From a virus, in IMG/VR virus record IMGVR_UViG_3300027839_000017, positions 1 to 47,585 of that record: a stretch of DNA of 47,585 nucleotides. One strand, written 5' to 3'. Every line of letters starts with the position of its first letter. Position 1 is the stretch's first letter. Positions 1-47,585 of the stretch are shown one piece after another. The translations under genes were made by a program, and so were the position numbers. The notes under the pieces are model-generated. The model had not been told where the DNA came from and did no database searches. It saw only the letters and a program-made list of their open reading frames with translations.

Positions 1-70
1 CAGTAGGATTTCTCCCCTACCGATCTCCGAGATTTAACCATTAGCAACTACCATACCAACCCCTTATCTT

Positions 71-270
71 GTATACAGACAACCTTGTCTATACCACATC
101 TAGCATATACAGACAACTCTGTCCGCGTCATCTAGTCCCATGTGTGACTGTCACACTGCGTCATAAAGTCACAGTGTGACATTTCTTATTTGTGCCATTT
201 TGACCCATATATCCCTACTGTGACACTTTGTCTCCATCAAATCATCCCACTTTAGAACAGACCGGTCTGT
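71..270. promoter_or_regulatory. Cluster of palindromic operator-like sites
   Basis: Two families of sites are visible. Family 1: TATACAGACAAC at 72-83 and again at 106-117, the first being half of the dyad AGACAACCTTGTCT (77-90); a perfect 14-base palindrome ACAGACCGGTCTGT lies at 257-270. Family 2: GTGTGACTGTCACAC (142-156) and GTCACAGTGTGAC (168-180), both perfect dyads around one central base, plus a half-site TGTGACA at 219-225. Such clustered dyads usually bind dimeric regulators, but no phage repressor or HTH regulator is recognised in the window, so the binder may be a host protein. Confidence 0.6.
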
Positions 271-290
271 CCTTTATCTCTCTCTCTCCT

Positions 291-652
291 TATAGTATAA
301 CTACTTCTTTCTCCTTCCCTTCTACAAGTATCTATCCTTTCTTCTATACTTAGTTATTGAGAGAAAGAAGTAGCTAGTTACTAAGAAGTATGGCAACTGT
401 TTGGTTTTGTGGCACCTTCCTCACTACTTCCTCTATAACGAATTAAGTATTGGTGAAGTATATATACTATTATATATATATATTATTTTAATATTATAGT
501 TATAGTCAGGGGTATTCTATAAAGTTACTACTACTTCTCTATAGTAAAGAAGAAGATAAAGAAGAGTATAAGGACTTATAGAAGAGGAAGGAGGAAGTAA
601 TTGGTATGATATACCTCATACTTCTTATCACTAGAGAAGTAGTTATACTATA
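291..652. repeat. Distant 18-base inverted repeat around an AT-rich core
   Basis: TATAGTATAACTACTTCT at 291-308 is the exact reverse complement of AGAAGTAGTTATACTATA at 635-652. Related copies occur between and after (TACTTCTCTATAGTA near 533, GTAGTTATACTTCT at 656-669). Between the arms, 459-506 is almost purely A/T. This could be an unwinding element with flanking protein sites, or a large cruciform. Confidence 0.55.
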
Positions 653-698
653 GAGTAGTTATACTTCTATCAGCTACCCAAGATCAGACTTATATATA

Positions 699-708
699 GG
701 GGGGGGGG
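699..708 (+). repeat. G10 homopolymer
   Basis: Ten consecutive G residues, directly after TATATATA and before ACTCCC. The length of such a run is prone to sequencing error and could also vary biologically. Function unknown. Confidence 0.8.
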
Positions 709-831
709 ACTCCCTAAAAGGTTCTGGCGTTACCCCCACACCATCAGAAATAATATGTTAGAAATCCACTCTTGTAACTTAGTTATAGGTTAGAGAAAGG
801 AGAGATAGATAGGAGAGATAGAGGTGGTGAT

Positions 832-863
832 AGCTAGTTAGATAAGCTAGTTAGATAAGCTAG
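832..863 (+). repeat. 13-base tandem repeat
   Basis: AGCTAGTTAGATA occurs at 832-844 and 845-857, followed by a partial unit AGCTAG (858-863). It lies about 100 bases upstream of the sigma-54 promoter at 966-983, a distance where activator or bending-protein sites would be expected. Its role is not known. Confidence 0.7.
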
Positions 864-965
864 AAAGGAAAGGTGGTGTTAGACGCTAGAAAGGTTTACT
901 AAGGTGGGGGCGAGGAGATGGAGGGGGTATAGGGTAAAGGGAAATAGTTATAGGTTAGGGAGGAG

Positions 966-983
966 TTGGCACGGAACTTGCTT
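966..983 (+). promoter_or_regulatory. Sigma-54 promoter P1 for the virion arm
   Basis: TTGGCACGGAACTTGCTT matches the sigma-54 consensus TTGGCAC-N5-TTGCT fully, with the required GG-N10-GC spacing (GG at 968-969, GC at 980-981). The predicted start site is about 993, giving a leader of about 47 bases before the first plus-strand gene at 1040. It is the last element of the non-coding left end. The match is seen directly; use by the phage activator at 41123-41956 is inferred. Confidence 0.88.
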
Positions 984-1039
984 ATAGGTAGGTAGTAAGA
1001 GCTGGAGAGAGTAGAATTTTAGAAATAAGGTAAAAGAGA

Positions 1040-1243
1040 ATGAATAGCCAGGAAGAGAAAGTCAGAGATCACTTGCGCCGGATGAATGTGCCAGAGGATT
1101 GTATGGTTAAATTTCTAGGTGGGGATAAGGTTAAGGAGATGGAAGGGACTAGGTTGTGGAAATTGAGCCAGATGTTGGTAGATGGATTAGATATAGAGAG
1201 TGTCCCTGCTATGAGTGGGAGTGAGAGAAAGCGGATGGCTTAG
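1040..1243 (+). CDS. Small hypothetical protein, first gene of the virion arm
   Basis: A 67-residue charged, soluble protein that I do not recognise. It is the first gene after promoter P1, with a purine-rich leader containing AAGG about 15 bases before the ATG. It has no membrane segment and no clear DNA-binding motif. The position before terS is where phages often carry small packaging or regulatory proteins, but no function is assigned. Confidence 0.65.
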   Translation: MNSQEEKVRDHLRRMNVPEDCMVKFLGGDKVKEMEGTRLWKLSQMLVDGLDIESVPAMSGSERKRMA

Positions 1244-1309
1244 GTTTGCTGAGGTTAGAAGTTGTAGTTCATCTTTCCCTGGTCCCCGCTTTTTTAAAAT
1301 ATAGATATC

Positions 1310-1777
1310 ATGAGTGAAGTAAATGAAGAACAGATCATAGCCCTTCTTAACTTCGATATGTCTCCGGAGCAGATAGCTTCGGAGTTAGACATTCCTCTGT
1401 CTGTAGTTATTAGCGTAGAGGATAGGGTTAATAACCATACAGCTAAATCATCTGATCAGATCAAGTCTCAGATAGAGAAGAAGCTACAGATGTCTATTGA
1501 GGAGATGATTATCAACACCTTAGTAGATATCGTTCAAGACTCAGATGCTTTACCTTCTGCAAGGATTAACGCAGGCGCCGATCTACGAGAGTGGCTAGAG
1601 AAGGATGGTAAACAGATAGATGTTCCTGATCAAGTAAGGAAGTTGTCTAGGGCTATGGAGTTAGCAGAGCCTAAGATCTTCACCTTACCCAGCGAGCTAC
1701 CTAATGGTGAGACTAAGACATCCTCTACTGCTGAGGTCAACAGTGCTTTAGATGAGGCGATGACAGTTAATACATGA
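1310..1777 (+). CDS. terS: Putative terminase small subunit
   Basis: 155 residues. It would bind phage DNA and hand it to the packaging motor. The N-terminal part (about 7-35) reads as a helix-turn-helix, with a segment like MSPEQIASELDIPLSVV, followed by charged helices (about 45-110) suited to oligomerisation and an acidic tail. The assignment rests on this HTH, its size, and a 4-base ATGA overlap (1774-1777) with the large terminase gene, the usual order. No specific TerS family is recognised, so confidence is moderate. Confidence 0.65.
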   Translation: MSEVNEEQIIALLNFDMSPEQIASELDIPLSVVISVEDRVNNHTAKSSDQIKSQIEKKLQMSIEEMIINTLVDIVQDSDALPSARINAGADLREWLEKDGKQIDVPDQVRKLSRAMELAEPKIFTLPSELPNGETKTSSTAEVNSALDEAMTVNT

Positions 1778-3381
1778 ACTACGATGCCCCAGAGGTCTTC
1801 AAGACTACGCCCCTCCTAACCACTAGGAGACCAGTCCTACCTATAGCTCATCCCGCCGTCCTCACTGCTCGCTATAACAAAGCAGTGTTAGCTGGTAATG
1901 TATCTATCCATGAGTGGCAGAAGCACGTATCTATAGACTTCGCTAAGGAATACCAGGATCAGCTTCAGAACGACATGAACGTCAAGGCTGCTAATGGTAG
2001 CGGTAAGACTGCAATGCTTGTAGCACCTTGCGCCGTCTGGTCAGCTCTATTCCCTTTAGCAGAAACAGTAGTTACCTCTGCCTCTGGTGTTCAGCTTGAC
2101 CGACAAACTGGTCGTAACATTAAGGATCTAGCTCTCTCCATGAATAAGGAAGAGGGTAATGAGTGGTGGACTATCCAGAACCGTAAGCTAAACTTCGCAC
2201 CTACAGATAGTAACATAGATTTCTTTGCTACTGATGAAGCAGGGCAGGCTGAAGGTTGGCATCCTAGAGAACCAGGATCTCTCCTCACTATCATAGCTGA
2301 TGAAGCTAAGACTATTAAGGACAAGATAGCTGTATCCTTTACTCGTTGTCATGATGCTCAACGGTATATGAAGGTATCCTCTACTGATGTGGATGAAGGG
2401 TTCTTCTATCGGTCTTGTATAGGTGGAATGGCTAAGACCTTCACTGTTACAGTTAGGGATTGTCCTCACATCAAGGAACACCAGATCAACAAGATCATAG
2501 TAGAGTATGGTAAATACTCAGCAATCACCCGCTCTATCTTATGGGCGGAATTTGCATCTACTAATGACGAAGGCATCATTAACCGCAAGGAACTCCTTGC
2601 CTGTATCCATGGGGATGCAATGCTATACAAGACAGATAAACCTTTCTTTCGTATAGGACTAGATCTTGCAGCAGGTGGAGATGAGACTGTTATGGTTATC
2701 TTTAAAGGTAACAAGCAGGTAGGCTTAGAGGGGTTCGTAGAGAAAGATACTACCCTCACAGCCAAGAGGATCAACGAACTACTCCTCAACAAATACGATC
2801 TAGATCCTACCTCCGTCAACTACCGCATCAACGCTGATGACGGCGGGGTTGGTAGAGGTATTAATGATCAAATCCGTAACCACGGTTGGAGATTAAAAAG
2901 AGTCCTTAATAACTCTAAACCTTTCAACGGTAAGATCTTCCTTAACCGTGGAGCAGAACTATACTTCAACGCATCTTCTCTTATTTCTAACAAAGAGATC
3001 ATTCCTTTCTCTGATGAGAAGACTATATCCCAACTTACTAAGCGTAGATTAGCTCATTCAGAGACTGGTCGCTTTAGATTAGAGGATAAGAAGAAACTCA
3101 AGTCCAGAGAAGGTTGGTCACCTGATAGAGCTGATGCATTCGTCTTAGCACTAGCAGGACTTAAGGCTCCTTACTTCACAGCAGGTAAAGAAGCGGAGCC
3201 AGAGGAACCTTCACTCCTCCACATAGACGATGAATTCAAAAGGCTCTGTATCCAGTCCTTTAACCAAGATCAAGATCGTATGCTTAAAGGATTAGAGCCT
3301 AAGATCAAGTTAGGTGCTAGCTTAGAACGTAATAAACCTAGACCTAAGACCTTTGTGAACGCCTATTCCCGTAGACTATAA
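1774..3381 (+). CDS. terL: Terminase large subunit (packaging ATPase-nuclease)
   Basis: 535 residues, the normal length. It translocates DNA into the prohead and cuts it. The ATPase half has Walker A NGSGKT (74-79, K78) and Walker B ending in D176-E177 within LLTIIADEAKT. The RNase H-like nuclease half shows its acidic residues at D297 (IGLDLAAGGDET), D355/D356 (NADDGGVGRG) and D454 (DRADAFVLALAG). It follows terS by an ATGA overlap and precedes the portal gene by 10 bases. Motifs are intact and identification is firm; whether packaging is headful or site-specific cannot be read from it. Confidence 0.95.
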   Translation: MNYDAPEVFKTTPLLTTRRPVLPIAHPAVLTARYNKAVLAGNVSIHEWQKHVSIDFAKEYQDQLQNDMNVKAANGSGKTAMLVAPCAVWSALFPLAETVVTSASGVQLDRQTGRNIKDLALSMNKEEGNEWWTIQNRKLNFAPTDSNIDFFATDEAGQAEGWHPREPGSLLTIIADEAKTIKDKIAVSFTRCHDAQRYMKVSSTDVDEGFFYRSCIGGMAKTFTVTVRDCPHIKEHQINKIIVEYGKYSAITRSILWAEFASTNDEGIINRKELLACIHGDAMLYKTDKPFFRIGLDLAAGGDETVMVIFKGNKQVGLEGFVEKDTTLTAKRINELLLNKYDLDPTSVNYRINADDGGVGRGINDQIRNHGWRLKRVLNNSKPFNGKIFLNRGAELYFNASSLISNKEIIPFSDEKTISQLTKRRLAHSETGRFRLEDKKKLKSREGWSPDRADAFVLALAGLKAPYFTAGKEAEPEEPSLLHIDDEFKRLCIQSFNQDQDRMLKGLEPKIKLGASLERNKPRPKTFVNAYSRRL

Positions 3382-3391: not shown

Positions 3392-5224
3392 ATGAATACC
3401 GAAGCAATACCAGTAACTAATGTGTCAACAGAGGAACTAAAGCCTAAGTCTCCAGAGAAGTATGGGGATTTTGACTTTACTAGTGCTAACCTAGGCAAGC
3501 TTATCTCTGATTGGAGCACAGTCCAGGACAAAGTAGAGCGTAACAGGAGAACTATTGACTACACTGTAGACAATAAGGAACTCAGGGCCTCTCAAGACCT
3601 ACAAGAAGATGAACTCCTCACCCCTGTGAGGATGATTAAGAAGAATATCAAGCGGTTAATCCCTTCTTACCTAGAAGCCTTAGTAGGAACGCAGGATGTA
3701 GTGTCACTTAAGAACTCCATAGACCCTACTATCTCTCCTGATGCTCTTAATTCTGAGATTACCAAACTGCTGAGGACTAACAGCTGGCTAGAGAACCACA
3801 TACTCAACATCCAAGGCTTCCTTTCCCACGGTATCAGCTACATAGTAACGGAGTTTAACGTAGATACTCCTTCTAGCATAGACAATATCAGATATAAGGT
3901 AGAGGATGTCCTCATTCCCTCTGACTTAGAGGATCTACAGTCAGCTGAGTTGATAGCATTGAGGTTAACTGTTACTCCTACTAAGTTAAGGGAGTTGGTT
4001 ACTAAGTTTGAGTTCAATAAGTCTGTAGCTGATAAGGCTATCAAGGATAAGATAGTAGATCAGGAGTCCCTTAGACCTAAGGAGAATGCTTTCCATATCT
4101 ACCACTGTTACTACAAGCAAGATGGGGTAGTGTATCATGCTTGGATCTCTAATACTAGGTCCAGCACATGGCTAAAGTCTCCTAAACCTCTATATCTAGG
4201 TAGGAGTGACAAGGAAGAGGAGCCTGAGTTAGATGTAGTAGGTCAACCTATCTTAGATCAAGAAGGTAATCCAGTAATTAAGGTTAACCTTATCCCTGCA
4301 CAAGAGTTTGAGTATCCTATAGACGTGTATTACCGTTCATTCCCTGAGAGTGGCAGGGTGCTAGAAGCTAGTGGTGTTGCAGAGGATAGTGGTCCTATCC
4401 AAGAGGCTGCTACTATCCTTTTATCTACCCACATCAACGCAACTGTTAGAAGTGGCAACCTATACGCTAGTGTTAACGCACTATCAGAAGAGGATTCAGG
4501 GGATGCACCGGCGCAACTAGATGTAAAGCTTAAAGCTGGTGAGATCCTTAACCGTCCTGTCACCTCTCACAGTGTGCAGAGGCCAGACAACACCTCTATC
4601 GAAGCTCTCTCTTATCTTTCCCAGGAGAATGCTGATGAGCAGTCACAGTTCTCTTTCCTCTTAGGTGTAGGTAGAGGAGATAGGAAAACCGCTACTGAGA
4701 CTAACGCAGCTCAGCAACAAACCTCTCAAGCATCTAGCCAAGATCTCCTAGTCTACCACTTAGCCTACCACTCTACAGTCACTAGAGCTGTGAGGATCAT
4801 GTTGAACAGGTGGAGGAATGGTAAGTTAGACATTAAGGCTCCAGAAGAGTTGAAGGATAGCAGGTGGCACATAGAGCCTGTAGCTCAGAAGGATGCTCTG
4901 ATGAAGCAGCAGAGGATTCAACAGCGGAGGATGGATTGGCCAGTAGTATCTGTTACTCCTATGGCTGATCTATTCTTTGTTGATTGGATAAGAGAAGCTT
5001 ATCCAGCGCATTCTGATAAGTATGTGCAAGCCTTGAACGATGGAGGAGGAGTTAATGGTCTTACTAAGGAGAACCAACAGCTTAAGGGTCAACTAGGCTC
5101 TGCGGCTAATATCTTAGAATCTTTACTCTCTGAGGGAATGCTAGAGGAACTAGATCCTAAAGAGAGGGAAACACTAAACCAGCAAATACAACAGATGAAA
5201 GGAGTAGCAGCAGATGAAGGCTAA
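3392..5224 (+). CDS. Portal protein
   Basis: 610 residues, acidic and mostly helical, forming the dodecameric ring through which DNA enters and leaves the capsid. Evidence is position directly after terL, length typical of podovirus portals, and portal-like passages: an N-terminal helical segment (about 30-70), the YLEAL/VSLKNS region near 95-110, and a C-terminal Gln-rich helix (about 420-450, NAAQQQTSQASSQD) with long coiled segments to the end. Its end overlaps the next gene by 11 bases. Confidence 0.85.
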   Translation: MNTEAIPVTNVSTEELKPKSPEKYGDFDFTSANLGKLISDWSTVQDKVERNRRTIDYTVDNKELRASQDLQEDELLTPVRMIKKNIKRLIPSYLEALVGTQDVVSLKNSIDPTISPDALNSEITKLLRTNSWLENHILNIQGFLSHGISYIVTEFNVDTPSSIDNIRYKVEDVLIPSDLEDLQSAELIALRLTVTPTKLRELVTKFEFNKSVADKAIKDKIVDQESLRPKENAFHIYHCYYKQDGVVYHAWISNTRSSTWLKSPKPLYLGRSDKEEEPELDVVGQPILDQEGNPVIKVNLIPAQEFEYPIDVYYRSFPESGRVLEASGVAEDSGPIQEAATILLSTHINATVRSGNLYASVNALSEEDSGDAPAQLDVKLKAGEILNRPVTSHSVQRPDNTSIEALSYLSQENADEQSQFSFLLGVGRGDRKTATETNAAQQQTSQASSQDLLVYHLAYHSTVTRAVRIMLNRWRNGKLDIKAPEELKDSRWHIEPVAQKDALMKQQRIQQRRMDWPVVSVTPMADLFFVDWIREAYPAHSDKYVQALNDGGGVNGLTKENQQLKGQLGSAANILESLLSEGMLEELDPKERETLNQQIQQMKGVAADEG

Positions 5225-5497: not shown

Positions 5498-6667
5498 ATG
5501 ACACCAGAAGAACAGGCAGCACTAGACGCAGCAGTTGAACAAGAGAAGACCTTGATGAATGATGATGAATCATTAGAGGATTTCTTCGGAGGAGAATTAG
5601 AACTAGAAGAAAAGGAAGAAGATGGTTCAGCCAATAAGAAGAGTGATGATGAAGCAGAGGTTATCGAGGGTGAAGATGAATCAGGTGGAGAGGAAGGAGG
5701 AGATAAAGGAGAAGAAGGAGATTCATCTGAAGATAGTTCCAGCGAAGAAGAGAAAGATGTCTTAGCTGATCTAGGTAAAGAACCAGAGGAGAAAGAGGAG
5801 AAGGTAGAGCCAGGTAAAGAGAAGAGAGATTATTCTGAGTTCACAGTAGAGGAACAAGCAGTCCTCAAAAGAATGCCTAACGAAGCATTTAACTACACCT
5901 CTGCTAAACTTAGAGAGCACAAGCTACTAATAGCAGAAACAGCTACTCTCAAAGATACTGCTCAGCACATCTACTCTAACCCCGAAGCATACCGTATCCT
6001 TCCTGAGTCTAAGGAGATCCTAGCTAACCTTACAGATCAAGAAGATCTCAAGGGCTTCTATCAAGAACAACTCCAGCTTGCCTCACAAGGTAAAGCTTGG
6101 ACTGGGCTGAAAGAAGGAGCAGATGGTAAGCTAGAAAGATTACCTATTGCTGCTACTGTAGCTAAGAACGAGGATGGGGATGAAGTAAATGTAGCTGATC
6201 CTCAACACGTAGCTTGGATTAACCAGCAGATGGGTAAGGTTGACTCAGACAAGCAATCCCTGATCTCTCGTTATGCAGCTATCAAGAAAGAGCATGAAGA
6301 GAAGTCTAAGGATATACCTAGCTTCCTAACTGCTGCTGAGGATAAGGTCTTCCCTGATATGAAGACTCTCACTAAACCTCAACAGAAGTTTGTGGATGAA
6401 GTGGCTAAGGCTTTCCCTCTCTCACTCAGGGTAGATCCTATGATGAAATTCGTAGGTAAAGGTCTTATCCATGTCCAAGCTTTAAAGACTCAGCTAGCTG
6501 CTAAGGACGCAGAGATCGCTAAGCTCAAGGGGATTAAGGTAGAGAAGGATCTCGCCGGACCAGGAACTAAGGCTGTAACCTCAGGTGCAGGAAGTAAAGA
6601 GGCTGATGGTGACACTAAAGAGTTCAAGGACAATGACTTCGAGGGGATGGGAATGCCTAGCCTTTAG
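5498..6667 (+). CDS. Putative capsid scaffolding protein
   Basis: 389 residues. The first 115 are extremely acidic (long Glu/Asp/Ser stretches), followed by helical, coiled-coil-prone sequence and a C-terminal helix (about 340-355, LKTQLAAKDAEIAKLKGIK). Acidic, helical, low-complexity proteins between portal and capsid genes are typical scaffolds that shape the procapsid and then leave. Start chosen for GAGGAATAGATATG. Function is inferred from composition and order. Confidence 0.72.
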   Translation: MTPEEQAALDAAVEQEKTLMNDDESLEDFFGGELELEEKEEDGSANKKSDDEAEVIEGEDESGGEEGGDKGEEGDSSEDSSSEEEKDVLADLGKEPEEKEEKVEPGKEKRDYSEFTVEEQAVLKRMPNEAFNYTSAKLREHKLLIAETATLKDTAQHIYSNPEAYRILPESKEILANLTDQEDLKGFYQEQLQLASQGKAWTGLKEGADGKLERLPIAATVAKNEDGDEVNVADPQHVAWINQQMGKVDSDKQSLISRYAAIKKEHEEKSKDIPSFLTAAEDKVFPDMKTLTKPQQKFVDEVAKAFPLSLRVDPMMKFVGKGLIHVQALKTQLAAKDAEIAKLKGIKVEKDLAGPGTKAVTSGAGSKEADGDTKEFKDNDFEGMGMPSL

Positions 6668-6679: not shown

Positions 6680-6702
6680 TGCCATACTAGCAACATGGCA
6701 TG
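6680..6702. repeat. Small inverted repeat overlapping promoter P4
   Basis: ATGCCAT (6680-6686) and ATGGCAT (6695-6701) form perfect 7-base arms. The right arm is the -24 box of P4, so a binding protein or cruciform here could control that promoter. Confidence 0.5.
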
Positions 6703-6712
6703 ATTCCTGCTC
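6695..6712 (+). promoter_or_regulatory. Sigma-54 promoter P4 for the major capsid gene
   Basis: ATGGCATGATTCCTGCTC carries TGGCAT-N5-CTGCT with exact GG-N10-GC spacing (GG 6697-6698, GC 6709-6710). The -12 side TTCCTGCT is identical to that of P3 (45632-45649). The predicted start is about 6722, giving a leader of about 145 bases before the capsid ATG at 6867. Weaker -24 box (CAT for CAC) than P1, but the position is ideal for boosting the most abundant virion protein. Confidence 0.68.
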
Positions 6713-6866: not shown

Positions 6867-8159
6867 ATGCCAGTTGATATTGATGTAGCCATCACAACAC
6901 GTCAGTGGGATGTGGAGGATGTTAACAAGTTTAACAAACTTCCCTACTACTTTGCTAAGATGTCAGCACGGAAGTCCGTGCAATATAGCGTATGGCAGAA
7001 GCTATACGGAACACTTCCTTGGACTCCCAAACAAGGAACTACTCTTCGAGGTGTAGCTCAGGAACCTTCTCCTGTTACTCGTCAACAGTTCTCACCTAAT
7101 GCTATTACAGCTGGTGCAACTCGTGACATTATCACTACCCTCGAACGAACCTCTGATGCTCTGGTTCAACGACACAAGTTTGAATCACCTCAGTTCCACT
7201 TCCTTCAAGAGTTCCAAGACTTTGCAACTCATATCGCATTTAACAATGCTGATATTAACCGTCAGATCATGGTTGCTCAAGAAGCTTTCTTGAGAACACA
7301 AGCTCTACATAAGTCTCCTATGATGGTTATCGTAGGTAAGACGGGGACTGGAACTGCTCTATCTGAGCTTACTTCTGTTCCTCATCAAACTGGTATCGTT
7401 GATATCGCTGCTGCTTCTGGTAAGACTACTGCCTTCTGGCAGGATGCTATCTCTAAGGTAGCTCCTACAGGTGGTGAGATGAACCTCCGAGCTTTCCATC
7501 GTTGCCTAGCTTATATCTCAGAAGATATCCAAGCAGAGCCTTTCTCTTCGCTTACCTCTGTATCTAAGAAAGATGCACCTGTAGCTGATCGTTACATCAT
7601 GACTGGTGAGAACTCCTTGTATAGTAACCTTATCTTCGATCAAGAAGCTAAGGCTTTGATGAGTGCTGATAGTAACTTCCTTACTAACCAGTTCACCGGT
7701 TCGTTGTTCAATCGTTTGAACTTCATGTCAGAACAGTATCCTTTGCGATTAGATGCAGATGGAACTTTCCCAGTCCCTGAGATCATCGTATCCTCTACTA
7801 CTGGTGGAGATAACCATAACCAAACCATTCCTAACCCTGACTATGCTGCTGCTCCTTTTGGGATTGCATTCATTACAGGTGCTAATGCTTATCGAGCTAT
7901 CTCTGTTGGTGCTCCTCCTGCTGCCTTTGCTGGTCAGTCTATGAGCGAAGGTCGATTCAATAAGCTTAACTGGAATGGTCGAGCACGTCTAACGGATAAC
8001 GTCCTCATCAACTATGGTGGTGGTATCCAAGATGTTAATAACTACGGTGAGGTTATGAAGTTCATTGCTGATGCAACCTTCGCTGCCCTAGCTCAAACGT
8101 CTAGGTTCTGTATTCCAGTCCTATACCGACGTAATCGCTTCGGTTCAACTGATAGCTAA
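6867..8159 (+). CDS. Major capsid protein
   Basis: 430 residues, with no membrane segment. Assigned by order (terminase, portal, scaffold, capsid), by size, by a composition rich in Ala, Thr, Asn and Phe typical of HK97-fold shells, and by its privileged expression signals: own sigma-54 promoter P4 and a structured leader. Leader before the ATG reads GCGAAAGATACTTATT, lacking GGAGG, as for the next structural genes. No named family motif is recognised, so the fold is inferred. Confidence 0.82.
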   Translation: MPVDIDVAITTRQWDVEDVNKFNKLPYYFAKMSARKSVQYSVWQKLYGTLPWTPKQGTTLRGVAQEPSPVTRQQFSPNAITAGATRDIITTLERTSDALVQRHKFESPQFHFLQEFQDFATHIAFNNADINRQIMVAQEAFLRTQALHKSPMMVIVGKTGTGTALSELTSVPHQTGIVDIAAASGKTTAFWQDAISKVAPTGGEMNLRAFHRCLAYISEDIQAEPFSSLTSVSKKDAPVADRYIMTGENSLYSNLIFDQEAKALMSADSNFLTNQFTGSLFNRLNFMSEQYPLRLDADGTFPVPEIIVSSTTGGDNHNQTIPNPDYAAAPFGIAFITGANAYRAISVGAPPAAFAGQSMSEGRFNKLNWNGRARLTDNVLINYGGGIQDVNNYGEVMKFIADATFAALAQTSRFCIPVLYRRNRFGSTDS

Positions 8160-22291: not shown

Positions 22292-22304
22292 TAAGGATAA
22301 AGTT

Positions 22305-31785: not shown

Positions 31786-32014
31786 CTATTATCTCCTTCT
31801 GTTCTATTACTCTTCTCTGTGCCCATTCCCTAATCATCTTCAACAGCTCTATGTTAATGAAGTCAGGGTTAACTGGTATATCGTCAAACCTAATATAGAT
31901 CTTAGGATGGACCATGTTACTGTGGCACTTACTATATTGTAAGAGGTGTTCTAGTTCGACCAGGATCTTAGTCTCGATCTCTAGCTTAGTTGGTATGTAT
32001 GCGTTGTTGCTCAT
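31775..32014 (-). CDS. Hypothetical protein downstream of polymerase
   Basis: 79 residues from ATG at 32014 (MSNNAYIPTKLEIE), chosen because it forms an ATGA overlap with the polymerase stop (32011-32014); an in-frame ATG 27 bases earlier would overlap more. Helical, with a C-terminal charged end. Not recognised. Confidence 0.62.
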   Translation of the reverse strand: MSNNAYIPTKLEIETKILVELEHLLQYSKCHSNMVHPKIYIRFDDIPVNPDFINIELLKMIREWAQRRVIEQKEIIDEL

Positions 32015-35235: not shown

Positions 35236-35494
<259 letters not shown>

Positions 35495-36068: not shown

Positions 36069-36770
36069 TTACTTCGCCTCAACAGGAGGTAAAGCTAAAG
36101 TGTTACCGATGGTATAGAATTCATACACCCTCTCCAGCACTGGAAGGAGATCGTTAGGTATGAACCTCCTTCCCTCATACATACCTAGAGGGGTTTTAGC
36201 TGTATTGGAGTTGCCGTTATTAGTCTCCATCACATACTCCTTATCTTTCATCTGAGAGAACATGACCATAGTAAAGTTAGCTTCTAGCCTACCCCTCATC
36301 TTCTGGCCTTGCAACGCAGCACATAGGTTCTGAGAGGTAGTCATTACTCCACCCTTCATAGCCGTAGCCTCGATGACCTCAGAGATAGCAGTGACTATGA
36401 CTATCTTGTTCATCTTCTTAATGGATCGGATGATCTTGAACATGATCTTCTTGTAGTCAGCGTATAGATCGAACCCATTGTTATGGATAAGAGCCAGCTC
36501 TGATTCCACCGACTCACCCAATATGGTTATGGAATCCAATATCACTACTGATATGTTATCCATCTTATCTATCTGCTGCAATCTTATCGATATAGCAGAT
36601 GCCTTCATCACCTCTTCGTAATGTCCGAGGTTAGCTTTAGGAAAAGGTAGAGCCTTATCATCTCCGTTGATCAGAGCTACTTGAGGTAGCATTAGATTCC
36701 TTAGAGAAGAGGTCTTACCTGAACCTGATCTTCCTACTAGCAGGATCTTAGGATAATCTGTTGGTTTCAT
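36069..36770 (-). CDS. Sak4-type RecA-like ATPase
   Basis: 233 residues. Walker A GRSGSGKT (13-20, K19), Walker B ISVVILDSITIL, followed by a sensor region IVIVTAISEVIE. Length and motif order match Sak4/AAA_24 proteins, which act in phage recombination with a single-strand binding partner. ATGA-linked to the upstream MazG-like gene. Confidence 0.82.
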   Translation of the reverse strand: MKPTDYPKILLVGRSGSGKTSSLRNLMLPQVALINGDDKALPFPKANLGHYEEVMKASAISIRLQQIDKMDNISVVILDSITILGESVESELALIHNNGFDLYADYKKIMFKIIRSIKKMNKIVIVTAISEVIEATAMKGGVMTTSQNLCAALQGQKMRGRLEANFTMVMFSQMKDKEYVMETNNGNSNTAKTPLGMYEGRRFIPNDLLPVLERVYEFYTIGNTLALPPVEAK

Positions 36771-37253: not shown

Positions 37254-38189
37254 CTAGTTCTGGAACTTGAGGGGCTCATACGGTCCCTCTTCGAACTTCG
37301 TCTTCAACAACTCATACAATCCCTGATCTCTATCAGCATTGCATAGATCCATATAGCTACAGTCACCCCAATACCCCGAGCATTGCATCCAATCCATAGG
37401 CCATGACTGCCTATTCCCTACATCTTGATGATCTAGATAGCCTATCCATTTCGCCATCGTCCGGTGCAACATCTCTTCGAAGATCTTCATGTCTTCTTCT
37501 AAGTAGATGGAGCTATCCGATTGTTCTACGTAACAGATCTTCTCTAGCTTAGGATCTTTCTTCTGTAACCTAGAGAGGAAGATACCTTCTAACCTAGACG
37601 AGGGGTAGTAACTCAACCCTAAGAACTTCTTCAACATCATAGAGTAGAACCTTAGCTGAGGTATATGAGCTGCCTTCTGTAGATACATCCGGCTATCCCA
37701 TGTAGCTGTGAACTTATAGTCTATGATCTCCAACTGCCTATCTGCTTTCTTCACCACCTTATCTATAGTGCCACACAGGATTACCTGTAGGTCATCCGTA
37801 ACCTTATAGGGGAGCGCGAAGTTCAACTCAGTTCCAAGAATCTTCTTATCTCCCTCGCCAATCTTTATAGGCATCTGGTGTAGATATTTAGATAGATGGT
37901 TCTGATAGTAGTTCAGACATACTAGTTGGAGATGTTGACAAGTCCTGAACTCCTTAGAATCTAAGATCTTACCTTCTGTATTCTCTTGGTAATACTCAGA
38001 GGCGTAGGCTAGAGCTGGGTTAAACCCTTCTCCTTCATACAACTTCCTCAAGAACCTATGTCCGGCGTTACCATAGATAGCTGCTATGGAATCAAACTTT
38101 GTTTGGGTATTCTCTACCTGCCTATAGAACATAGCTCTAGGGCAGAAGGTAGATGTTAGTAATGATGGGTCGAAGTATACTGTTCTCAT
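37254..38189 (-). CDS. PD-(D/E)XK nuclease with Fe-S cluster motif
   Basis: 311 residues. Nuclease core: GTIDKV, then EIIDYKFTAT with D157 and K159 of the DxK motif. Four Cys (C16 in TSTFCPRAMFY, and C270, C277, C283 in the C-terminal CSGYWGDCSYMDLC) match the [4Fe-4S]-binding arrangement of Cas4/AddB-type exonucleases. Likely resects DNA ends for recombination with Sak4 and the DUF669-like protein. Confidence 0.87.
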   Translation of the reverse strand: MRTVYFDPSLLTSTFCPRAMFYRQVENTQTKFDSIAAIYGNAGHRFLRKLYEGEGFNPALAYASEYYQENTEGKILDSKEFRTCQHLQLVCLNYYQNHLSKYLHQMPIKIGEGDKKILGTELNFALPYKVTDDLQVILCGTIDKVVKKADRQLEIIDYKFTATWDSRMYLQKAAHIPQLRFYSMMLKKFLGLSYYPSSRLEGIFLSRLQKKDPKLEKICYVEQSDSSIYLEEDMKIFEEMLHRTMAKWIGYLDHQDVGNRQSWPMDWMQCSGYWGDCSYMDLCNADRDQGLYELLKTKFEEGPYEPLKFQN

Positions 38190-41072: not shown

Positions 41073-41090
41073 AGCAGGTTCCGTGCCACA
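41073..41090 (-). promoter_or_regulatory. Sigma-54 promoter P2 for replication operon
   Basis: On the minus strand TGTGGCACGGAACCTGCT: TGGCAC-N5-CTGCT with GG-N10-GC spacing. The 11 bases TGGCACGGAAC are identical to those of P1. Predicted start near 41062, about 22 bases before the glycosyltransferase ATG. Located just after the gene for the activator itself. Confidence 0.8.
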
Positions 41091-41122: not shown

Positions 41123-41956
41123 TTATTGTGTAGATGGTGGTAAGATCTTATTAACCATAAGTTGGAACACGTAGTTAATGATAGCCCTACAGTTTCCCTG
41201 GTCTAGGAAAATCTTACCTTCCTTTGCTTTGATAATGAATGTGTTAGTATCATACTCACTAGGTGATTGGTTGAAGATCTTAGAGTAATAGTAGATGAAC
41301 ATCATCTCCAAGTCATCTATCCTCTTAGCTATAGGCGGGATGGAGAAGGTTAGCTTAGCTATCCTGAAGTATAGATCACTACGGAACTCCTCCTTATCCA
41401 TCATCTCAGGTAGGTTCTTATTCGTTGCGGCTACGACACGACACCTAAAGCCATAGTCTTCTTGTCCTCCGATAGCTCTAGCTCGTTGAGTCTCTAAGGC
41501 TCTGAGAAGCTTAGCCTGCATGGATAGAGGGAGTTCGCCGATCTCATCTAGGAACAGAGTCCCATGATTAGCCTGTTGAAACAAACCCTCCCTATCCTTA
41601 ACACACCCCGTGTAACTACCTTTCTTAGCTCCGAAGAACTCAGCCTCTATCAACTCAGATGGTATAGCTCCGCAGTTAACTACTACGAACTTACCTTCCC
41701 TGCCATTGTGTAGGCGGTAAGCTAAGGCTTCCTTACCTACCCCTGAAGGACCACTAATCAGACATGAGATATCTAACTTACTCACTACCTCTATCTGATT
41801 CAAGGTATGAATGAGCTTATCATCCTGAGTATAGAAGGTTCCTTTCCATCTACTCCTTAGAGAAGACTCGAGGTTGAAGATGTCTAGCTTCTTATCAGGA
41901 AGTATATCCTCTTGGAATTCATCTAAGATAGTCTGCTTGGTATGTTGGGCTTGCAT
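41123..41956 (-). CDS. Sigma-54 activator ATPase (AAA+ domain only)
   Basis: 277 residues. Walker A GPSGVGKE (K75), sigma-54 contact loop GSYTGC (113-118, replacing GAFTGA; key Thr and Gly kept), Walker B LFLDEIGELP (D137, E138), sensor AATN, arginine residues FRSDLYFR (R192, R198), and lid GNCRA (254-258). These are the marks of bacterial enhancer-binding proteins, which use ATP to open sigma-54 promoters. No receiver or other sensory domain precedes it and no HTH follows: it ends about 20 residues after the lid. Enhancer-less activators such as FlgR and CtcC are known. The phage promoters P1-P4 are its likely targets. Confidence 0.93.
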   Translation of the reverse strand: MQAQHTKQTILDEFQEDILPDKKLDIFNLESSLRSRWKGTFYTQDDKLIHTLNQIEVVSKLDISCLISGPSGVGKEALAYRLHNGREGKFVVVNCGAIPSELIEAEFFGAKKGSYTGCVKDREGLFQQANHGTLFLDEIGELPLSMQAKLLRALETQRARAIGGQEDYGFRCRVVAATNKNLPEMMDKEEFRSDLYFRIAKLTFSIPPIAKRIDDLEMMFIYYYSKIFNQSPSEYDTNTFIIKAKEGKIFLDQGNCRAIINYVFQLMVNKILPPSTQ

Positions 41957-42537: not shown

Positions 42538-42648
42538 TCATCCTCTCTTTATTGTTTCCATGATTGCGTGGATTACCCACATCACTGAGACTATACCTGC
42601 CCCCATAATGAATCCGATAAAGAACTCTATTCCTATTGCTGCTATCAT
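42538..42648 (-). CDS. 36-residue membrane peptide
   Basis: Begins MIAAIGIEFFIGFIMGAGIV: one or one and a half membrane helices then a basic end. Its ATG overlaps the helicase stop as ATGA (42645-42648) and its stop lies 3 bases before the next start, so translation is very likely. Fourth tiny membrane protein of the minus arm. Confidence 0.68.
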   Translation of the reverse strand: MIAAIGIEFFIGFIMGAGIVSVMWVIHAIMETIKRG

Positions 42649-44222
42649 ACACTCATTTCTATCTGTAATGTTTTCGTATCTTCCTCTTGATCCATGAAGT
42701 CACCAGACTCCAAACTCTCTTCTGTATCTCCATCCCCGCTATCACTTACCATTAACCCGGAGTCATCTATGTTCTTCTTACCCTTGATCCTCTTCTCTTC
42801 TGGTATGAATAGGTCTGCCCAACTCTCACCCTTAGCTATCATCTTGCTCATACAATTGAGTTTCTTCTCTAGCTTATGAGATACATACTCTTCTACAGTA
42901 TCCTTGAAGTATAGCATGTAGATGAAGGTGTTAGATATGGAGTTGATACGGTGAGGTCTACCTGCTGTTTGTGCTACTTCGATAGCGTTGAAGGCAGGTG
43001 ACATATAGAGATCTCGAGGATGAGTAGTGGTTGCGTTATCAGGGTTATGATGAGCTGATAGCCCAGTTCCGCCGGCTCCGATAGTAAGGACTAACACCTG
43101 AGTCTTACCTGTTTGGTAGTCATCTAGTTGCTGTTGCCTTTCTTCCATAGACTGTCCTCCTTTGATATAGGAAGCAGTGAGTTTCTGTTGCTTGAAGCAG
43201 AAGCCTAACAACTCCACTGTGTCTAGATACTTAATCGCTATGATAGGAGAGCGACCATTATCTATAGACTGCTTCGCCGCCATAGCTAGGTATTGAGCGC
43301 GGATCGACTCGGCTCTCTTCTGTAGCTTACCAAGAGCTATAGCCTTCTGCAACGCTGTGTTCTGAGTTACTACCTTACCTAAGATCTCCAACTCTCTCAT
43401 ATAATCATCCCAAGCTGCATCATACATCTCTCTATGCTGAGGAGTAGCGAAAGGGATTACTAGTTGGGTAGCCTTAGCTTTATGCTTGAACCTTACTCCC
43501 TTAACTGCTACGAAGCTACGATCTAAGGCTCTCTTGATCCTCTCTACTCCCGAAGCATTCAGTTCATCTGGATTCCCTGCCGTATCCCATATCCAATCCT
43601 TCCACTTATCATGGGTCAACCTCAACCTCTTATCCATAGATCCAGGGATAGTCTTAACTCCGCAGCTATAGCAGATCCACCAGCTCTCGCCAGGTTTGAT
43701 GAAGGGAGTATAGCCTACGTTTAAGAACTGTGTCTCTTGGCTATCTATGAGTAAGGAGGAGAGTAACTGAGTTATCTTAGCTGCCTTATTCCTTAACGCC
43801 TGCGGTTCATCCACTATCACATACCTCGGAAAGAGTTCTGGTTTCCAGTGATACTCTATCTCTTCCTCCATCCCTACGTAATACTTCTCCTCATTGAAGT
43901 ATAGTTTCTTATAATGTTTAGTTCGAAGGTTAGCATAGGACATACAGATAACCTGGTTAGGTCCAAGGCCAAACTCCTTGAACACACGTTGAGATTGCTT
44001 GACTACAGAAGAGGGGCTGATGTATAGGAAGGGAGAGTGAATGCTACCGTTGATCGGCGAGACGCCTCCTTCCCTCTTCAATAACTCCTTAATCAATAGA
44101 GCTACCATATACGTCTTACCTAAACCTGTCATAGCTGACAAGTGAATGCCTCTCTCTATAGCTAGAGCTAGGATCATCTCATCCTTAGCTTTAACTTGGA
44201 ACTCGAAGTGTTGGATGCTCAT
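42645..44222 (-). CDS. SF2/SNF2-like helicase
   Basis: 525 residues. Motif I MTGLGKT (K36), motif II VDEPQ (D138) where most have DEAH/DExH, and motif VI QTAGRPHRI (Q418-R425), plus LTIGAGGTGLSAHHN as motif V. A Cys pair (CYSC) lies in an inserted segment around residues 175-200. Close to SNF2-type and phage recombination/replication helicases. It could remodel DNA or displace proteins. Confidence 0.87.
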   Translation of the reverse strand: MSIQHFEFQVKAKDEMILALAIERGIHLSAMTGLGKTYMVALLIKELLKREGGVSPINGSIHSPFLYISPSSVVKQSQRVFKEFGLGPNQVICMSYANLRTKHYKKLYFNEEKYYVGMEEEIEYHWKPELFPRYVIVDEPQALRNKAAKITQLLSSLLIDSQETQFLNVGYTPFIKPGESWWICYSCGVKTIPGSMDKRLRLTHDKWKDWIWDTAGNPDELNASGVERIKRALDRSFVAVKGVRFKHKAKATQLVIPFATPQHREMYDAAWDDYMRELEILGKVVTQNTALQKAIALGKLQKRAESIRAQYLAMAAKQSIDNGRSPIIAIKYLDTVELLGFCFKQQKLTASYIKGGQSMEERQQQLDDYQTGKTQVLVLTIGAGGTGLSAHHNPDNATTTHPRDLYMSPAFNAIEVAQTAGRPHRINSISNTFIYMLYFKDTVEEYVSHKLEKKLNCMSKMIAKGESWADLFIPEEKRIKGKKNIDDSGLMVSDSGDGDTEESLESGDFMDQEEDTKTLQIEMSV

Positions 44223-45431: not shown

Positions 45432-45450
45432 ATTGTGCCTTTTCTATTGG

Positions 45451-45631: not shown

Positions 45632-45649
45632 AGCAGGAAGTGTGCCAAG
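45632..45649 (-). promoter_or_regulatory. Sigma-54 promoter P3
   Basis: On the minus strand CTTGGCACACTTCCTGCT: TTGGCAC-N5-CTGCT, GG-N10-GC spacing exact. Predicted start near 45621, giving a leader of about 190 bases before the ATG at 45431. It lies 6 bases after the end of the gene at 45656-46000. Confidence 0.8.
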
Positions 45650-45655
45650 TGTGGT

Positions 45656-46000
45656 TTATGGGATAACTTTAAATACGCAAGGCGAGAAGCAGCTAGAGTT
45701 ACTTGAGGAGTCATAGTTATATCCTTCTTTGAGTAGATAATCCCTAAGTCTAAGGTTCTGGACATTCTCTATGAAGGATACTCTACCGCATTCCTTAGCT
45801 GTCCTCTCGAATCTTAAGAGGAATTGCTTAAAGATTCCTTCTCCTCTCTTTCCTTCATCTACTTCGACTGAGGCTATGTCTAGGCAATCGAAAGATTCTT
45901 CATTCAGGTAGCGTGAAGACTTGCGAACGTAGATAGAGATATCTTTCTCTCTTATCCATTGGTTACGCATAGGTAAGGATATGAATTCTTGTAGGTTCAT
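45656..46000 (-). CDS. Putative GNAT acetyltransferase
   Basis: 114 residues. DIASVEVDEGKRGEGIFKQF is the CoA-binding motif A (R/Q-x-x-G-x-G/A form), followed by ENVQNLRLRDYLLKEGY, the usual end of GNAT cores. It might acetylate host or phage proteins. Upstream of P3 in the operon. Confidence 0.75.
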   Translation of the reverse strand: MNLQEFISLPMRNQWIREKDISIYVRKSSRYLNEESFDCLDIASVEVDEGKRGEGIFKQFLLRFERTAKECGRVSFIENVQNLRLRDYLLKEGYNYDSSSNSSCFSPCVFKVIP

Positions 46001-46014
46001 TTCTTATCTTTCTC

Positions 46015-46368
46015 TTAGTGCAACATCCCACATAGGCAGGTAAAGGGTTTACCTTTGCTTGTCCTCTTTTCCATAATCTTCATACAATCCATGTGTCTAC
46101 GGTATACCTCGAGGATTCTAGAGGATGGCATATTCGCCGTTATCATCAAGCACTCCCTTTCTTCCCAAGATATCTCCTTGTTATTAACAAAGGCTCTTGC
46201 AGCTAGTTCGACATGAGAGATGACGTAAGGAGTAGCAGTGTATTCTAAAGGATAAACTGTGATAGCTCTCCCGTTGTGGGGATAGGTTCCTTCAGGTTGT
46301 ATAGGGACAGCACAATCGAACTCACGGTAAGAGATCCCTGATAACTTGACTAATTTATTGATGTTCAT
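46015..46368 (-). CDS. Hypothetical protein
   Basis: 117 residues with a Cys pair near the C-terminus (CLCGM). Mixed alpha/beta; not recognised. In the first-transcribed end of the minus arm, where takeover genes are expected. Confidence 0.58.
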   Translation of the reverse strand: MNINKLVKLSGISYREFDCAVPIQPEGTYPHNGRAITVYPLEYTATPYVISHVELAARAFVNNKEISWEERECLMITANMPSSRILEVYRRHMDCMKIMEKRTSKGKPFTCLCGMLH

Positions 46369-46374
46369 AGATGT

Positions 46375-46560
46375 TTAACCTGTTACTTCAATGTTTAATT
46401 TATCGACCTCTTCTTTTGATAGAGGATACCCATCAAGATAGATAGTATGTTCTCCTATTCTATCCATATCACTTAACTCTACCTCTACATTTATCTTATG
46501 TCCTTTGAGAATAGAAGAGAGTTCTTCTACTAATTGTAGATGTTCTTCTGGTGTGTCCAT
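46375..46560 (-). CDS. Hypothetical small acidic protein
   Basis: 61 residues, acidic, no motif. Shares the AGAAAGATAAGGAATA leader with its neighbours, so it is probably translated at a similar level. Confidence 0.58.
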   Translation of the reverse strand: MDTPEEHLQLVEELSSILKGHKINVEVELSDMDRIGEHTIYLDGYPLSKEEVDKLNIEVTG

Positions 46561-46580
46561 ATTTATTCCTTATCTTTCTT

Positions 46581-47000
46581 CTAAAAAGTTATATCCAAGC
46601 CTTCTTCATTCTCATCTCTAGCTATATCAAAACCATTTATGGATATAACTCCTTCACCGCAATAACTAGCAGATACTTGGACAGTTACTCCAGTTTCCGC
46701 GATTAAGTCATTCAGTTTAGAAACGAATAGATCCTTGGCTACCTCTTGTTCTCTAGCTCTCTTTCTTTGCTCTGCTATCCAATCAGATAGAACTGAGAAC
46801 TGTTTCTTAACTTCTATTACTTGTAGTTGCTCCTTGGCATTAGAGTATAGGCCCCCTCGATATAGATCACTTAGGTAATAAGCATCAGCTAGGTTTTCAA
46901 TCAATCTCCTTGCTTCTTTCTCATCAGGAGTGTTAGAGACTATATCTCTAGCCTTCTTTTGGATCTCTTCAATCCATTCTTTACTGTGTCTTATAGTCAT
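46581..47000 (-). CDS. Hypothetical helical protein
   Basis: 139 residues, helical and charged through about 105, then a short beta pattern. Leader AAGATAAGGAATAGATT gives a good ribosome site. Not recognised. Confidence 0.62.
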   Translation of the reverse strand: MTIRHSKEWIEEIQKKARDIVSNTPDEKEARRLIENLADAYYLSDLYRGGLYSNAKEQLQVIEVKKQFSVLSDWIAEQRKRAREQEVAKDLFVSKLNDLIAETGVTVQVSASYCGEGVISINGFDIARDENEEGLDITF

Positions 47001-47098
47001 AATCTATTCCTTATCTTTTCTTTTCTTTCTTCTAACTTATAACTGATCCGCCATCCATCTCTCCAACATTCCCAAGCATCCTCTTTAATGACTAACAT
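46997..47098 (-). CDS. 33-residue mini-gene
   Basis: Begins MLVIKEDAWECWRDGWRISY and ends in a basic helix (RKEKIRNRL). Stop overlaps the next start as ATGA (46997-47000), with AGG about 6 bases upstream of its own ATG. Plausible small gene; function unknown. Confidence 0.5.
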   Translation of the reverse strand: MLVIKEDAWECWRDGWRISYKLEERKEKIRNRL

Positions 47099-47198
47099 CT
47101 ACCTAAAAAGGATACCGTCTCTGCTAACAAGTAGTAGAGTGAATCTCGGAAGAGATTTGACGATACGCAGGTTGTTGGCTGAGAGTTATTCTTCTTGA

Positions 47199-47435
47199 TT
47201 AACTAACTTCGTATCTATTCAACAATCCTGCTTTGACTTGCAAGATTCTATTCCATATCTCTGCTTTGGATAAGAATCCTTCTACATCTTCATGATTAGG
47301 AGCAATGATCAAAATGTTTTTATTGTTCTTACCTAAAAACTTAATATCTGTTTCGATATTTTGCAGAGAGCCTTCTTGTTGGCGAAATAAAGTCTCTGTA
47401 AAAATATATTTTAGTGCGTGTTGATTAATCTTCAT
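47199..47435 (-). CDS. Hypothetical protein
   Basis: 78 residues, mixed alpha/beta, no membrane segment. Its start overlaps the end of the partial gene at the window edge by 11 bases. Not recognised. Confidence 0.58.
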   Translation of the reverse strand: MKINQHALKYIFTETLFRQQEGSLQNIETDIKFLGKNNKNILIIAPNHEDVEGFLSKAEIWNRILQVKAGLLNRYEVS

Positions 47436-47585
47436 TGAACAATGATTTTAGTTCGTCTGCCTCTTGAGGCTTAATTTTTCCTCCCAAGATTAGTCGAAGT
47501 TGACGTCGCCTTAGAGCACTCTTATATAAGGTTTTTTCTTCTTTGCTTTCCGGTGTAATATTAGGTACTGCCTGGGGTTTTCCTT
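47425..47585 (-). CDS. Partial gene cut by the window end
   Basis: Open from the window edge to TAA at 47425-47427; 52 residues seen, ending KIKPQEADELKSLFNED, basic middle (LRRRQLRLILGG). No ATG is present, so the 5' part is missing. Joining position 1 after the end gives a stop within six codons and no start, so a simple circular closure does not repair it. Confidence 0.7.
   Translation of the reverse strand, partial: GKPQAVPNITPESKEEKTLYKSALRRRQLRLILGGKIKPQEADELKSLFNED

What the first reader, a model, noticed from the sequence alone, without database searches (positions are those of the whole stretch)
1..47585. T7-like virion plan driven by host sigma-54 in place of a phage RNA polymerase
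The tail and ejection genes follow the T7 order 11-12-13-14-15-16, but no single-subunit RNA polymerase is present. In its place are an activator ATPase and four matched promoters covering all major units. I know of no described podovirus class defined by such a circuit. As a system this may be previously undescribed.
Basis: inference. Interest (0 to 1): 0.95.

Follow-up and report, generated by a model that had tools for sequence, protein, structure and literature searches.

The report
Phage family run by host sigma-54
This virus of bacteria carries a small ATP-driven switch protein, plus matching start signals before its main gene blocks, that appear to redirect the host's specialised sigma-54 RNA polymerase; the arrangement is conserved across a large uncultured family of short-tailed phages, and some members carry their own altered sigma-54.

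Summary
Window ORF 41123-41956(-) is a sigma-54 activator ATPase (PF00158, 7e-56) that ends at the AAA+ lid. The four best GG-N10-GC sites in 47.6 kb are all intergenic and correctly oriented (0.04 expected at that score). No T7-type RNA polymerase was found.

Relatives settle it. All 37 long contigs chosen only by capsid-protein similarity encode a short activator. Of 80 capsid genes, 73 have TGGCA-N8-GCW within 300 bp upstream on the same strand, against 0 with spacer 9, 11 or 12 and 0 on the other strand. All 16 capsid clusters (<60% identity) have it. Of 44 activator loci, 36 have a site just after the activator (0.2 expected). None of 63 records has the RNA polymerase; T7 rings.

Five family genomes, and a further contig with the same replication genes, encode a diverged sigma-54. 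In those genomes the promoters change from TGC to AGC at -12, and their recognition helix differs.

Corrections: no RNA polymerase is already known in T7-supergroup phages; the tail is generic podoviral; terminase is first and early/late blocks converge, unlike T7. No isolate or host is known; nothing is tested experimentally. No published precedent was found in the open-access library searched.

The parts
41123..41956 (-). short sigma-54 activator (AAA+ bEBP core only: no receiver domain, no C-terminal HTH), 277 aa
   Evidence: PF00158 E=6.7e-56; best solved relatives NtrC/FleQ/FlrC/PspF AAA+ domains; alignment with 20 relatives shows all end about 20-30 residues after the GNVR motif
967..982 (+). 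sigma-54 promoter TGGCACGGAACTTGCT before the terminase/portal/scaffold unit
   Evidence: top score of the window, 18.9 bits; a site lies within 2 kb upstream of TerL in 13/19 genomes, 0.64 expected
6696..6711 (+). sigma-54 promoter TGGCATGATTCCTGCT, 155 bp before the major capsid gene
   Evidence: score 16.1; same place in 70/79 MCP loci and with N10 spacing in 73/80
41073..41088 (-). sigma-54 promoter TGGCACGGAACCTGCT, 35 bp after the activator gene, before the replication/recombination operon
   Evidence: score 17.6; same place in 36/44 activator loci, 0.2 expected
45632..45647 (-). sigma-54 promoter TGGCACACTTCCTGCT heading the operon that holds the helicase and the activator itself
   Evidence: score 16.7; a site within 2.5 kb upstream of the helicase in 11/20 genomes, 0.8 expected
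43..58 (-). weak fifth sigma-54-like site TGGTATGGTAGTTGCT; would fire into the right-end early genes only if the genome ends are joined
   Evidence: score 12.5; not counted as established
1774..3381 (+). terminase large subunit
   Evidence: phrog_2 E=1.8e-16
3392..5224 (+). portal protein (by position and family conservation)
   Evidence: homologues at the same place in relatives; no library hit
5498..6667 (+). probable scaffold protein
   Evidence: position between portal and capsid, acidic, homologues in relatives
6867..8159 (+). major capsid protein (family marker)
   Evidence: 29-37% identity to relatives' proteins at the same position; family profile finds 79 loci; no PHROG, Pfam or PDB-profile hit
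17695..18645 (+). gp11-type tail adaptor
   Evidence: model pLDDT 81; Foldseek prob 1.0 to SU10, A4, N4, Pa223, VP1 tail adaptors
18642..21107 (+). gp12-type tail nozzle with an extra C-terminal domain
   Evidence: model pLDDT 70; Foldseek E=1.5e-21 Pa223, 1.6e-14 P22 gp10, 4.3e-13 T7 gp12
21470..22291 (+). gp14-like internal/ejection protein (by position)
   Evidence: homologues in 18+ relatives at the same position
22293..23597 (+). gp15-like internal/ejection protein (by position)
   Evidence: weak PHROG virion hit E=0.0025; position
23602..28128 (+). gp16-like large internal/ejection protein (by position and size)
   Evidence: 1508 aa; homologues of 1020-2416 aa in relatives
28125..29516 (-). 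primase/helicase-type replication protein
   Evidence: phrog_2373 1e-9, DUF3987 3.5e-18
32011..34494 (-). family A DNA polymerase
   Evidence: phrog_17 8.7e-60
36069..36770 (-). Sak4-like recombination ATPase
   Evidence: phrog_2872 2.5e-31
37254..38189 (-). PD-(D/E)XK exonuclease
   Evidence: PF12705 5.2e-15
42645..44222 (-). SNF2/DEAD-type helicase
   Evidence: phrog_62 5.9e-23

Best explanation
The window is the genome, or nearly so, of a lytic-type podovirus of an unnamed, uncultured family that expresses most of its genes through the enhancer-dependent form of the host RNA polymerase. The host sigma-54 holoenzyme binds GG-N10-GC promoters before the terminase unit, the capsid/tail unit, the replication operon and the helicase-activator operon, and stays there as an inert closed complex. 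Early genes are first read by another route: most likely host sigma-70 at the right end, possibly with basal help from host activators. That read-through makes the phage's 277-aa activator. The activator is a bare AAA+ ring: it lacks both the sensory domain that would hold it off and the DNA-binding domain that would tether it to an enhancer. It would therefore be constitutively active and act from solution on every sigma-54 promoter of the phage at once, opening them by ATP hydrolysis. Because the activator lies behind one of them, the switch is self-amplifying. It plays the role that the T7 RNA polymerase plays in T7. A subset of the family has gone further and encodes its own diverged sigma-54, with an altered -12 helix and matching AGC promoters, which would separate phage promoters from the host regulon. 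Shown here by sequence: the activator family and its missing domains; the promoters, their positions and strict spacing across divergent relatives; the absence of a single-subunit polymerase; and the co-variation of phage sigma-54 with the -12 base. Inferred: ATPase activity, promoter opening, action without an enhancer, temporal order, positive feedback and host rpoN dependence.
For: Activator E=6.7e-56 with the catalytic motifs kept. Four sites score >=16.1 against 0.04 expected. Conservation: 36/44 short-activator loci carry a site just after the activator (0.2 expected), against 3/31 for other activators. MCP 16/19 (0.09 expected), TerL 13/19 (0.64), activator-downstream 16/21 (0.14); 83 strong sites in 22 genomes against 7.0 expected, with 62 intergenic although 13% of the sequence is intergenic. 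Capsid-selected, hence non-circular, set: an activator in 37/37 long contigs; a promoter in 70/79 loci, 0.66 expected. Spacing control: N10 73/80; N9, N11 and N12 0/80; opposite strand 0/80; 16/16 clusters below 60% identity. No single-subunit polymerase in 63 records, with T7 as a positive control. Gene order is colinear at 20-39% protein identity. Phage sigma-54: G023 has AID, CBD and DBD domains; also four of 37 contigs and L161. -12 base counts are T130:A20 without rpoN and T2:A18 with it. No shared upstream element was found near the promoters, in line with activators that lack an HTH.
Against: No isolate, host, transcriptome or rpoN test exists. Seven capsid loci of one marine subgroup (L194-L197, L202, L207, L239) have no canonical site before the capsid gene, although long members carry the activator. 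G058 has AGC-type promoters but no detectable rpoN, and G052 is mixed, so the link between phage sigma-54 and the -12 base is not perfect. How the activator is first made is not shown; no convincing sigma-70 promoter was found at the right end. The position weights for scoring were approximate and from memory; the spacing control does not use them.
Confidence: 0.88

Rival explanations
1. The phage promoters are real sigma-54 promoters but are fired mainly by host activators (for example nitrogen or envelope-stress regulators), so the phage senses host physiology. The phage activator mainly rewires host genes.
For: The phage early region offers no obvious sigma-70 start. A sigma-54 promoter also heads the operon that encodes the activator (45632). 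That host activators can work from solution at high level is general knowledge.
Against: An activator is present in all 37 long contigs selected by capsid, and a promoter sits directly after it in most. No shared upstream binding element for a host activator was found. Phages with their own sigma-54 also keep the activator.
Confidence: 0.07
2. The GG-N10-GC motif is the binding site of another regulator or a packaging/replication signal, not a sigma-54 promoter.
For: No transcription data exist; the downstream TATAGGTAGG-like stretch in the window sites is unexplained.
Against: Strict N10 spacing (73/80 against 0 for N9/N11/N12), strict strand, intergenic position before genes, linkage to an activator whose only known partner is sigma-54, and the coupled change of the -12 base where the phage encodes sigma-54.
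Confidence: 0.03
3. The four sites and the activator gene are chance or a recent stray acquisition with no regulatory role.
For: Single-genome motif searches with loose patterns give no excess.
Against: Score-based test 4 against 0.04; conservation across relatives at about 30% capsid identity.
Confidence: 0.01

Closest known systems
Autographiviridae (T7) transcription programme
   Same: A dedicated phage protein, made early, switches on several matched promoters before the late and replication units; podoviral tail with gp11- and gp12-type proteins.
   Different: The switch is an ATPase that remodels host sigma-54 polymerase, not a single-subunit polymerase. Terminase is at the start of the late block, and late and early blocks converge on opposite strands.
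RNA-polymerase-less T7 supergroup podoviruses (SIO1, VpV262, cobaviruses; PMC6775973)
   Same: Podoviral tail and T7-type replication genes without a phage polymerase.
   Different: No sigma-54 activator or sigma-54 promoter set is described for them in the paper read (the word sigma does not occur there).
Minimal bacterial enhancer-binding proteins: FleT (no regulatory and no DNA-binding domain), FlgR and CtcC (no DNA-binding domain) (PMC7175178)
   Same: AAA+ core with GAFTGA loop, no HTH; FleT also lacks the sensory domain.
   Different: Virus-encoded; the review read calls FleT the only known activator lacking both domains, whereas here a whole viral family does.
Phage factors that redirect host polymerase (T4 gp55 with gp45 clamp, AsiA/MotA, SPO1 gp28; from general knowledge)
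   Same: Host core enzyme kept, promoter choice changed by a phage protein.
   Different: Those act on or replace sigma-70-type initiation; here the enhancer-dependent, ATP-driven sigma-54 path is used.

Membership tests
sigma-54 activators (bEBP, PF00158) | AAA+ domain with Walker A/B, GAFTGA loop, R fingers | tested here: met
   PF00158 E=6.7e-56; motifs, loop variant GSYTGC
sigma-54 activators (bEBP, PF00158) | C-terminal Fis-type HTH for enhancer binding | tested here: not met
   absent in the window and all 20 aligned relatives; a known optional domain (FlgR, CtcC, FleT)
sigma-54 activators (bEBP, PF00158) | ATP-dependent remodelling of sigma-54 closed complexes | not testable with these tools
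   needs biochemistry
sigma-54 promoters | GG-N10-GC within YTGGCACG-N4-TTGCW | tested here: met
   (spacing control)
Autographiviridae | single-subunit RNA polymerase gene | tested here: not met
   PF00940 absent in the window and 62 relatives, present in T7
Autographiviridae | unidirectional gene order with terminase at the right end | tested here: not met
   terminase starts the late block; early block on the opposite strand
podoviral tail homology group (T7/P22/N4 type) | gp11/gp4-type adaptor and gp12/gp10-type nozzle | tested here: met
   Foldseek against PDB
podoviral tail homology group (T7/P22/N4 type) | T7-type gp14/gp15/gp16 ejection proteins | tested here: inconclusive
   position and size only; no fold or sequence match to T7 proteins obtained
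sigma-54 factor (RpoN), in relatives | AID, core-binding and DNA-binding domains with RpoN box | tested here: met
   G023 protein: PF00309 4.5e-13, PF04963 4e-32, PF04552 9.4e-51, ARRTAAKYR box

The most novel reading that the evidence does not exclude
A large family of podoviruses uses ATP-driven sigma-54 initiation as its master gene-expression switch, and one branch has evolved a virus-encoded, promoter-orthogonal sigma-54 plus cognate activator: a complete private sigma-54 system with -12 specificity shifted from TGC to AGC.
Probability: 0.75. Interest if true: 0.95.

Novelty: new variant of a known kind. Interest (0 to 1): 0.92.

Why it matters
Phages are known to take over transcription with their own polymerase, a sigma-70-like factor, or an antiterminator. 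This would be a route based on the enhancer-dependent, ATP-driven sigma-54 machinery, used by a broad environmental phage family with no cultured member found here. It predicts a host range limited to rpoN-bearing bacteria, except for the branch that brings its own sigma-54. It supplies dozens of natural minimal activators without DNA-binding or sensory domains, useful for testing how such activators work without enhancers. The sigma-54 variants with a changed -12 base are natural experiments on promoter recognition and candidate orthogonal parts for gene circuits.

Tried and rejected
Loose IUPAC searches (TGGCACNNNNNTTGCA with 3 mismatches; TGGNANNNNNNTTGC with 1) show no excess over shuffles; only a weighted score separates the four sites.

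Single-protein searches of viral contigs with the activator, capsid or terminase found nothing, nor did a two-sequence activator alignment or the pattern FR[ST]DLY[FY]RIA. The activator aligned with four diverse activators worked.

Hits of the activator and of rpoN in the phage collection are mostly bacterial sequence filed as phage, so they were not used as phage evidence.

The Desulfofustis phage site (score 16.8) lies inside a gene and the phage has no activator hit, so it was dropped. MT121960 has a short activator but no supporting promoter set.

Host finding: one genome-collection hit, a Methanoregulaceae MAG contig, taken as misbinned because archaea are not known to have sigma-54. A search for a shared upstream enhancer motif gave nothing consistent. 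T7 homology by sequence profile against the PDB failed for gp11-like, gp12-like, portal and capsid and was replaced by predicted structures for the first two.
Full report
WHAT IS IN THE WINDOW. The 47,585-base window is a virus record with no near relative in 50,697 phage records (first 25 kb searched). The left 28 kb reads rightward: small terminase unit, TerL, portal, probable scaffold, capsid, tail and ejection genes. The right 19 kb reads leftward: primase, family A polymerase, Sak4, exonuclease, activator, helicase. ORF 41123-41956(-) is a sigma-54 activator AAA+ protein (PF00158, 6.7e-56) whose closest solved relatives are NtrC, FleQ and PspF domains. It has about 42 residues before the AAA+ domain and ends at the lid: no sensory domain and no helix-turn-helix.

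THE PROMOTERS. Loose pattern searches show no excess. A weighted score separates four sites from everything else: 967-982(+) TGGCACGGAACTTGCT, 41073-41088(-) TGGCACGGAACCTGCT, 45632-45647(-) TGGCACACTTCCTGCT and 6696-6711(+) TGGCATGATTCCTGCT. Expected at that score: 0.04. All are intergenic and point at a gene or operon. The weights were my approximation of the published consensus, so a weight-free control was added below.

RELATIVES. A profile of the activator plus four other activators found 80 viral contigs. Of these, 46 have a short activator next to the same replication genes. In 36 of the 44 with enough sequence a strong site lies within 400 bp after the activator gene (0.2 expected), against 3 of 31 for other activators. 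Full contigs of 21 relatives are colinear with the window at 20-39% protein identity. A site precedes the capsid gene in 16/19 (0.09 expected), the terminase in 13/19 (0.64) and follows the activator in 16/21 (0.14). Over 22 genomes there are 83 strong sites against 7.0 expected, 62 of them intergenic although 13% of the sequence is intergenic.

A NON-CIRCULAR TEST. Relatives were then chosen by the capsid protein alone (79 loci). All 37 long contigs checked carry an activator with an open frame of about 230-310 aa. 70 of 79 capsid genes have a site within 300 bp upstream (0.66 expected). With a plain pattern, TGGCA-N8-GCW occurs in 73 of 80 upstream regions on the coding strand. Spacings one shorter, one longer or two longer occur in none, and the opposite strand has none with the right spacing. 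All 16 capsid clusters below 60% identity have the site. This is the signature of sigma-54, whose two promoter elements are known to need a fixed spacing.

NO T7-TYPE POLYMERASE. PF00940 is absent from the window and 62 related records; T7 itself rings at 1e-109. Records may be incomplete, but absence in all 63 is hard to explain by fragments. Lack of the polymerase alone is not new: SIO1 and VpV262 lack it (PMC6775973).

HOW T7-LIKE IS IT. Predicted structures place the gp11-like protein with podovirus adaptors (SU10, cyanophage A4, N4, Pa223) and the gp12-like protein with nozzles of Pa223, VP1, P22 and T7. So the tail belongs to the broad T7/P22/N4 structural group rather than to T7 in particular. 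Terminase begins the late block, and early and late blocks converge; in T7 all genes run one way and terminase comes last. The gp14/15/16 labels rest on order and size.

PHAGES WITH THEIR OWN SIGMA-54. No sigma-54 gene was found in the window or in most relatives; they presumably use the host's. Five family genomes do encode one: G023 (all three domains; 28-37% identical to the RpoN hits listed) and G055, G057, G059 and G060. Two further contigs, L159 and L160, carry a 95% identical gene in the same context, and L161 carries a second-lineage gene beside a short activator. In the five genomes, intergenic sites read TGGCAY-N6-AGCW. They stand before the capsid gene in all five. In the four-genome group G055-G060 they also stand before the gene upstream of rpoN; before rpoN itself in G055, G057 and G060 (the equivalent site in G059 is TGGCACACTTTAGGCT); and before the terminase unit in G059 and G060. 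Counting the base at that position: T130, A20, C8, G4 in genomes without rpoN and T2, A18, C2, G1 with it (Fisher p=6e-12, though sites within related genomes are not independent). At the capsid promoter of long contigs it is 5 of 5 A with rpoN, against 28 T, 2 A and 3 no site without. All six phage sigma-54 proteins aligned read HETTVSRAV where bacterial ones read HESTVSRVT in the -12-reading helix. Exceptions are G058 (AGC promoters, no rpoN found) and G052 (mixed).

MECHANISM. Best reading: closed sigma-54 complexes wait on phage promoters; early read-through makes the activator; the activator, free of sensory and tethering domains, opens all of them from solution; and because its own operon is behind one of them the switch feeds itself. 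No consistent shared upstream element was found near the promoters in seven genomes, as expected if no enhancer is used. A review lists FleT as the only known activator lacking both flanking domains (PMC7175178); here a whole viral family lacks them. The first burst of activator is unexplained: no good sigma-70 site was seen at the right end. A weak fifth site at 43-58(-) would serve if the genome ends join.

NOVELTY. Ten full-text searches of the open-access library returned no paper describing a phage sigma-54 activator circuit or a phage-encoded sigma-54 (one search asked only about the Desulfofustis phage). Subscription papers and preprints were not searchable, so this is weak evidence of absence. 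The parts are known families; their use as a viral master switch, and a virus-borne sigma-54 with shifted specificity, appear new.

LIMITS. Everything is computational. No host, isolate or transcript is known. One marine subgroup (L194-L197, L202, L207, L239) keeps the activator, where contigs are long enough to tell, but lacks the capsid promoter.

Noticed in passing
L148:2730-4196(+) (G023); G055, G057, G059, G060; L159, L160, L161: Virus-encoded full-length sigma-54 with altered -12 helix and AGC-type promoters; in G055, G057 and G060 an AGC site lies 35-45 bp upstream of the rpoN gene itself.
   Followed up: yes
L257-L259 (G058): AGC-type promoters before capsid and early genes but no detectable rpoN; the gene may have been lost or the host sigma-54 may share the specificity.
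   Followed up: partly
L194-L197, L202, L207, L239, upstream of capsid gene: Marine subgroup without a canonical site; a conserved GGGCATACCAYTGCT (spacing one short) stands at a similar place.
   Followed up: no
L002:19773-20687 (MT121960, human gut phage with baseplate genes): An unrelated contractile-tail-type phage also encodes a 304-aa activator without HTH, so short activators may have entered phages more than once.
   Followed up: partly
L037:9914-10798; L058, L059: Short activators (295 and 248 aa) in viral contigs that share no detected gene with the window; L037 also has three strong sigma-54 sites.
   Followed up: no
window 18642-21107: The gp12-like nozzle carries an extra, poorly predicted C-terminal domain (about residues 550-821) with an HHAPY motif resembling metallophosphoesterases; several relatives have similarly long forms.
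   Followed up: partly
window 13224-16447 and 40293-41039: A cluster of glycosyltransferase-like and sulfotransferase-like genes inside the structural block, and another glycosyltransferase-like gene directly behind the activator-linked promoter.
   Followed up: no
window 30794-31519(-): Papain-family cysteine protease (PF00112, 2.4e-18) in the replication block; the gut phage MT121960 has a similar-looking gene near its activator.
   Followed up: no
window 35243-35281: Perfect (GTTA)x9.8 tandem repeat between replication genes.
   Followed up: no
L153 (JACTVG010000014.1): A contig binned as a Methanoregulaceae archaeon encodes this family's capsid protein (85% identity to a relative); probably misbinned.
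   Followed up: no
phages collection, Acinetobacter phage MD-2021a, Listeria LM, Salmonella S.Kent and similar records: Records filed as phages hold bacterial chromosome (atoC, glnG, rpoN and others), which inflates apparent phage hits for sigma-54 proteins.
   Followed up: partly
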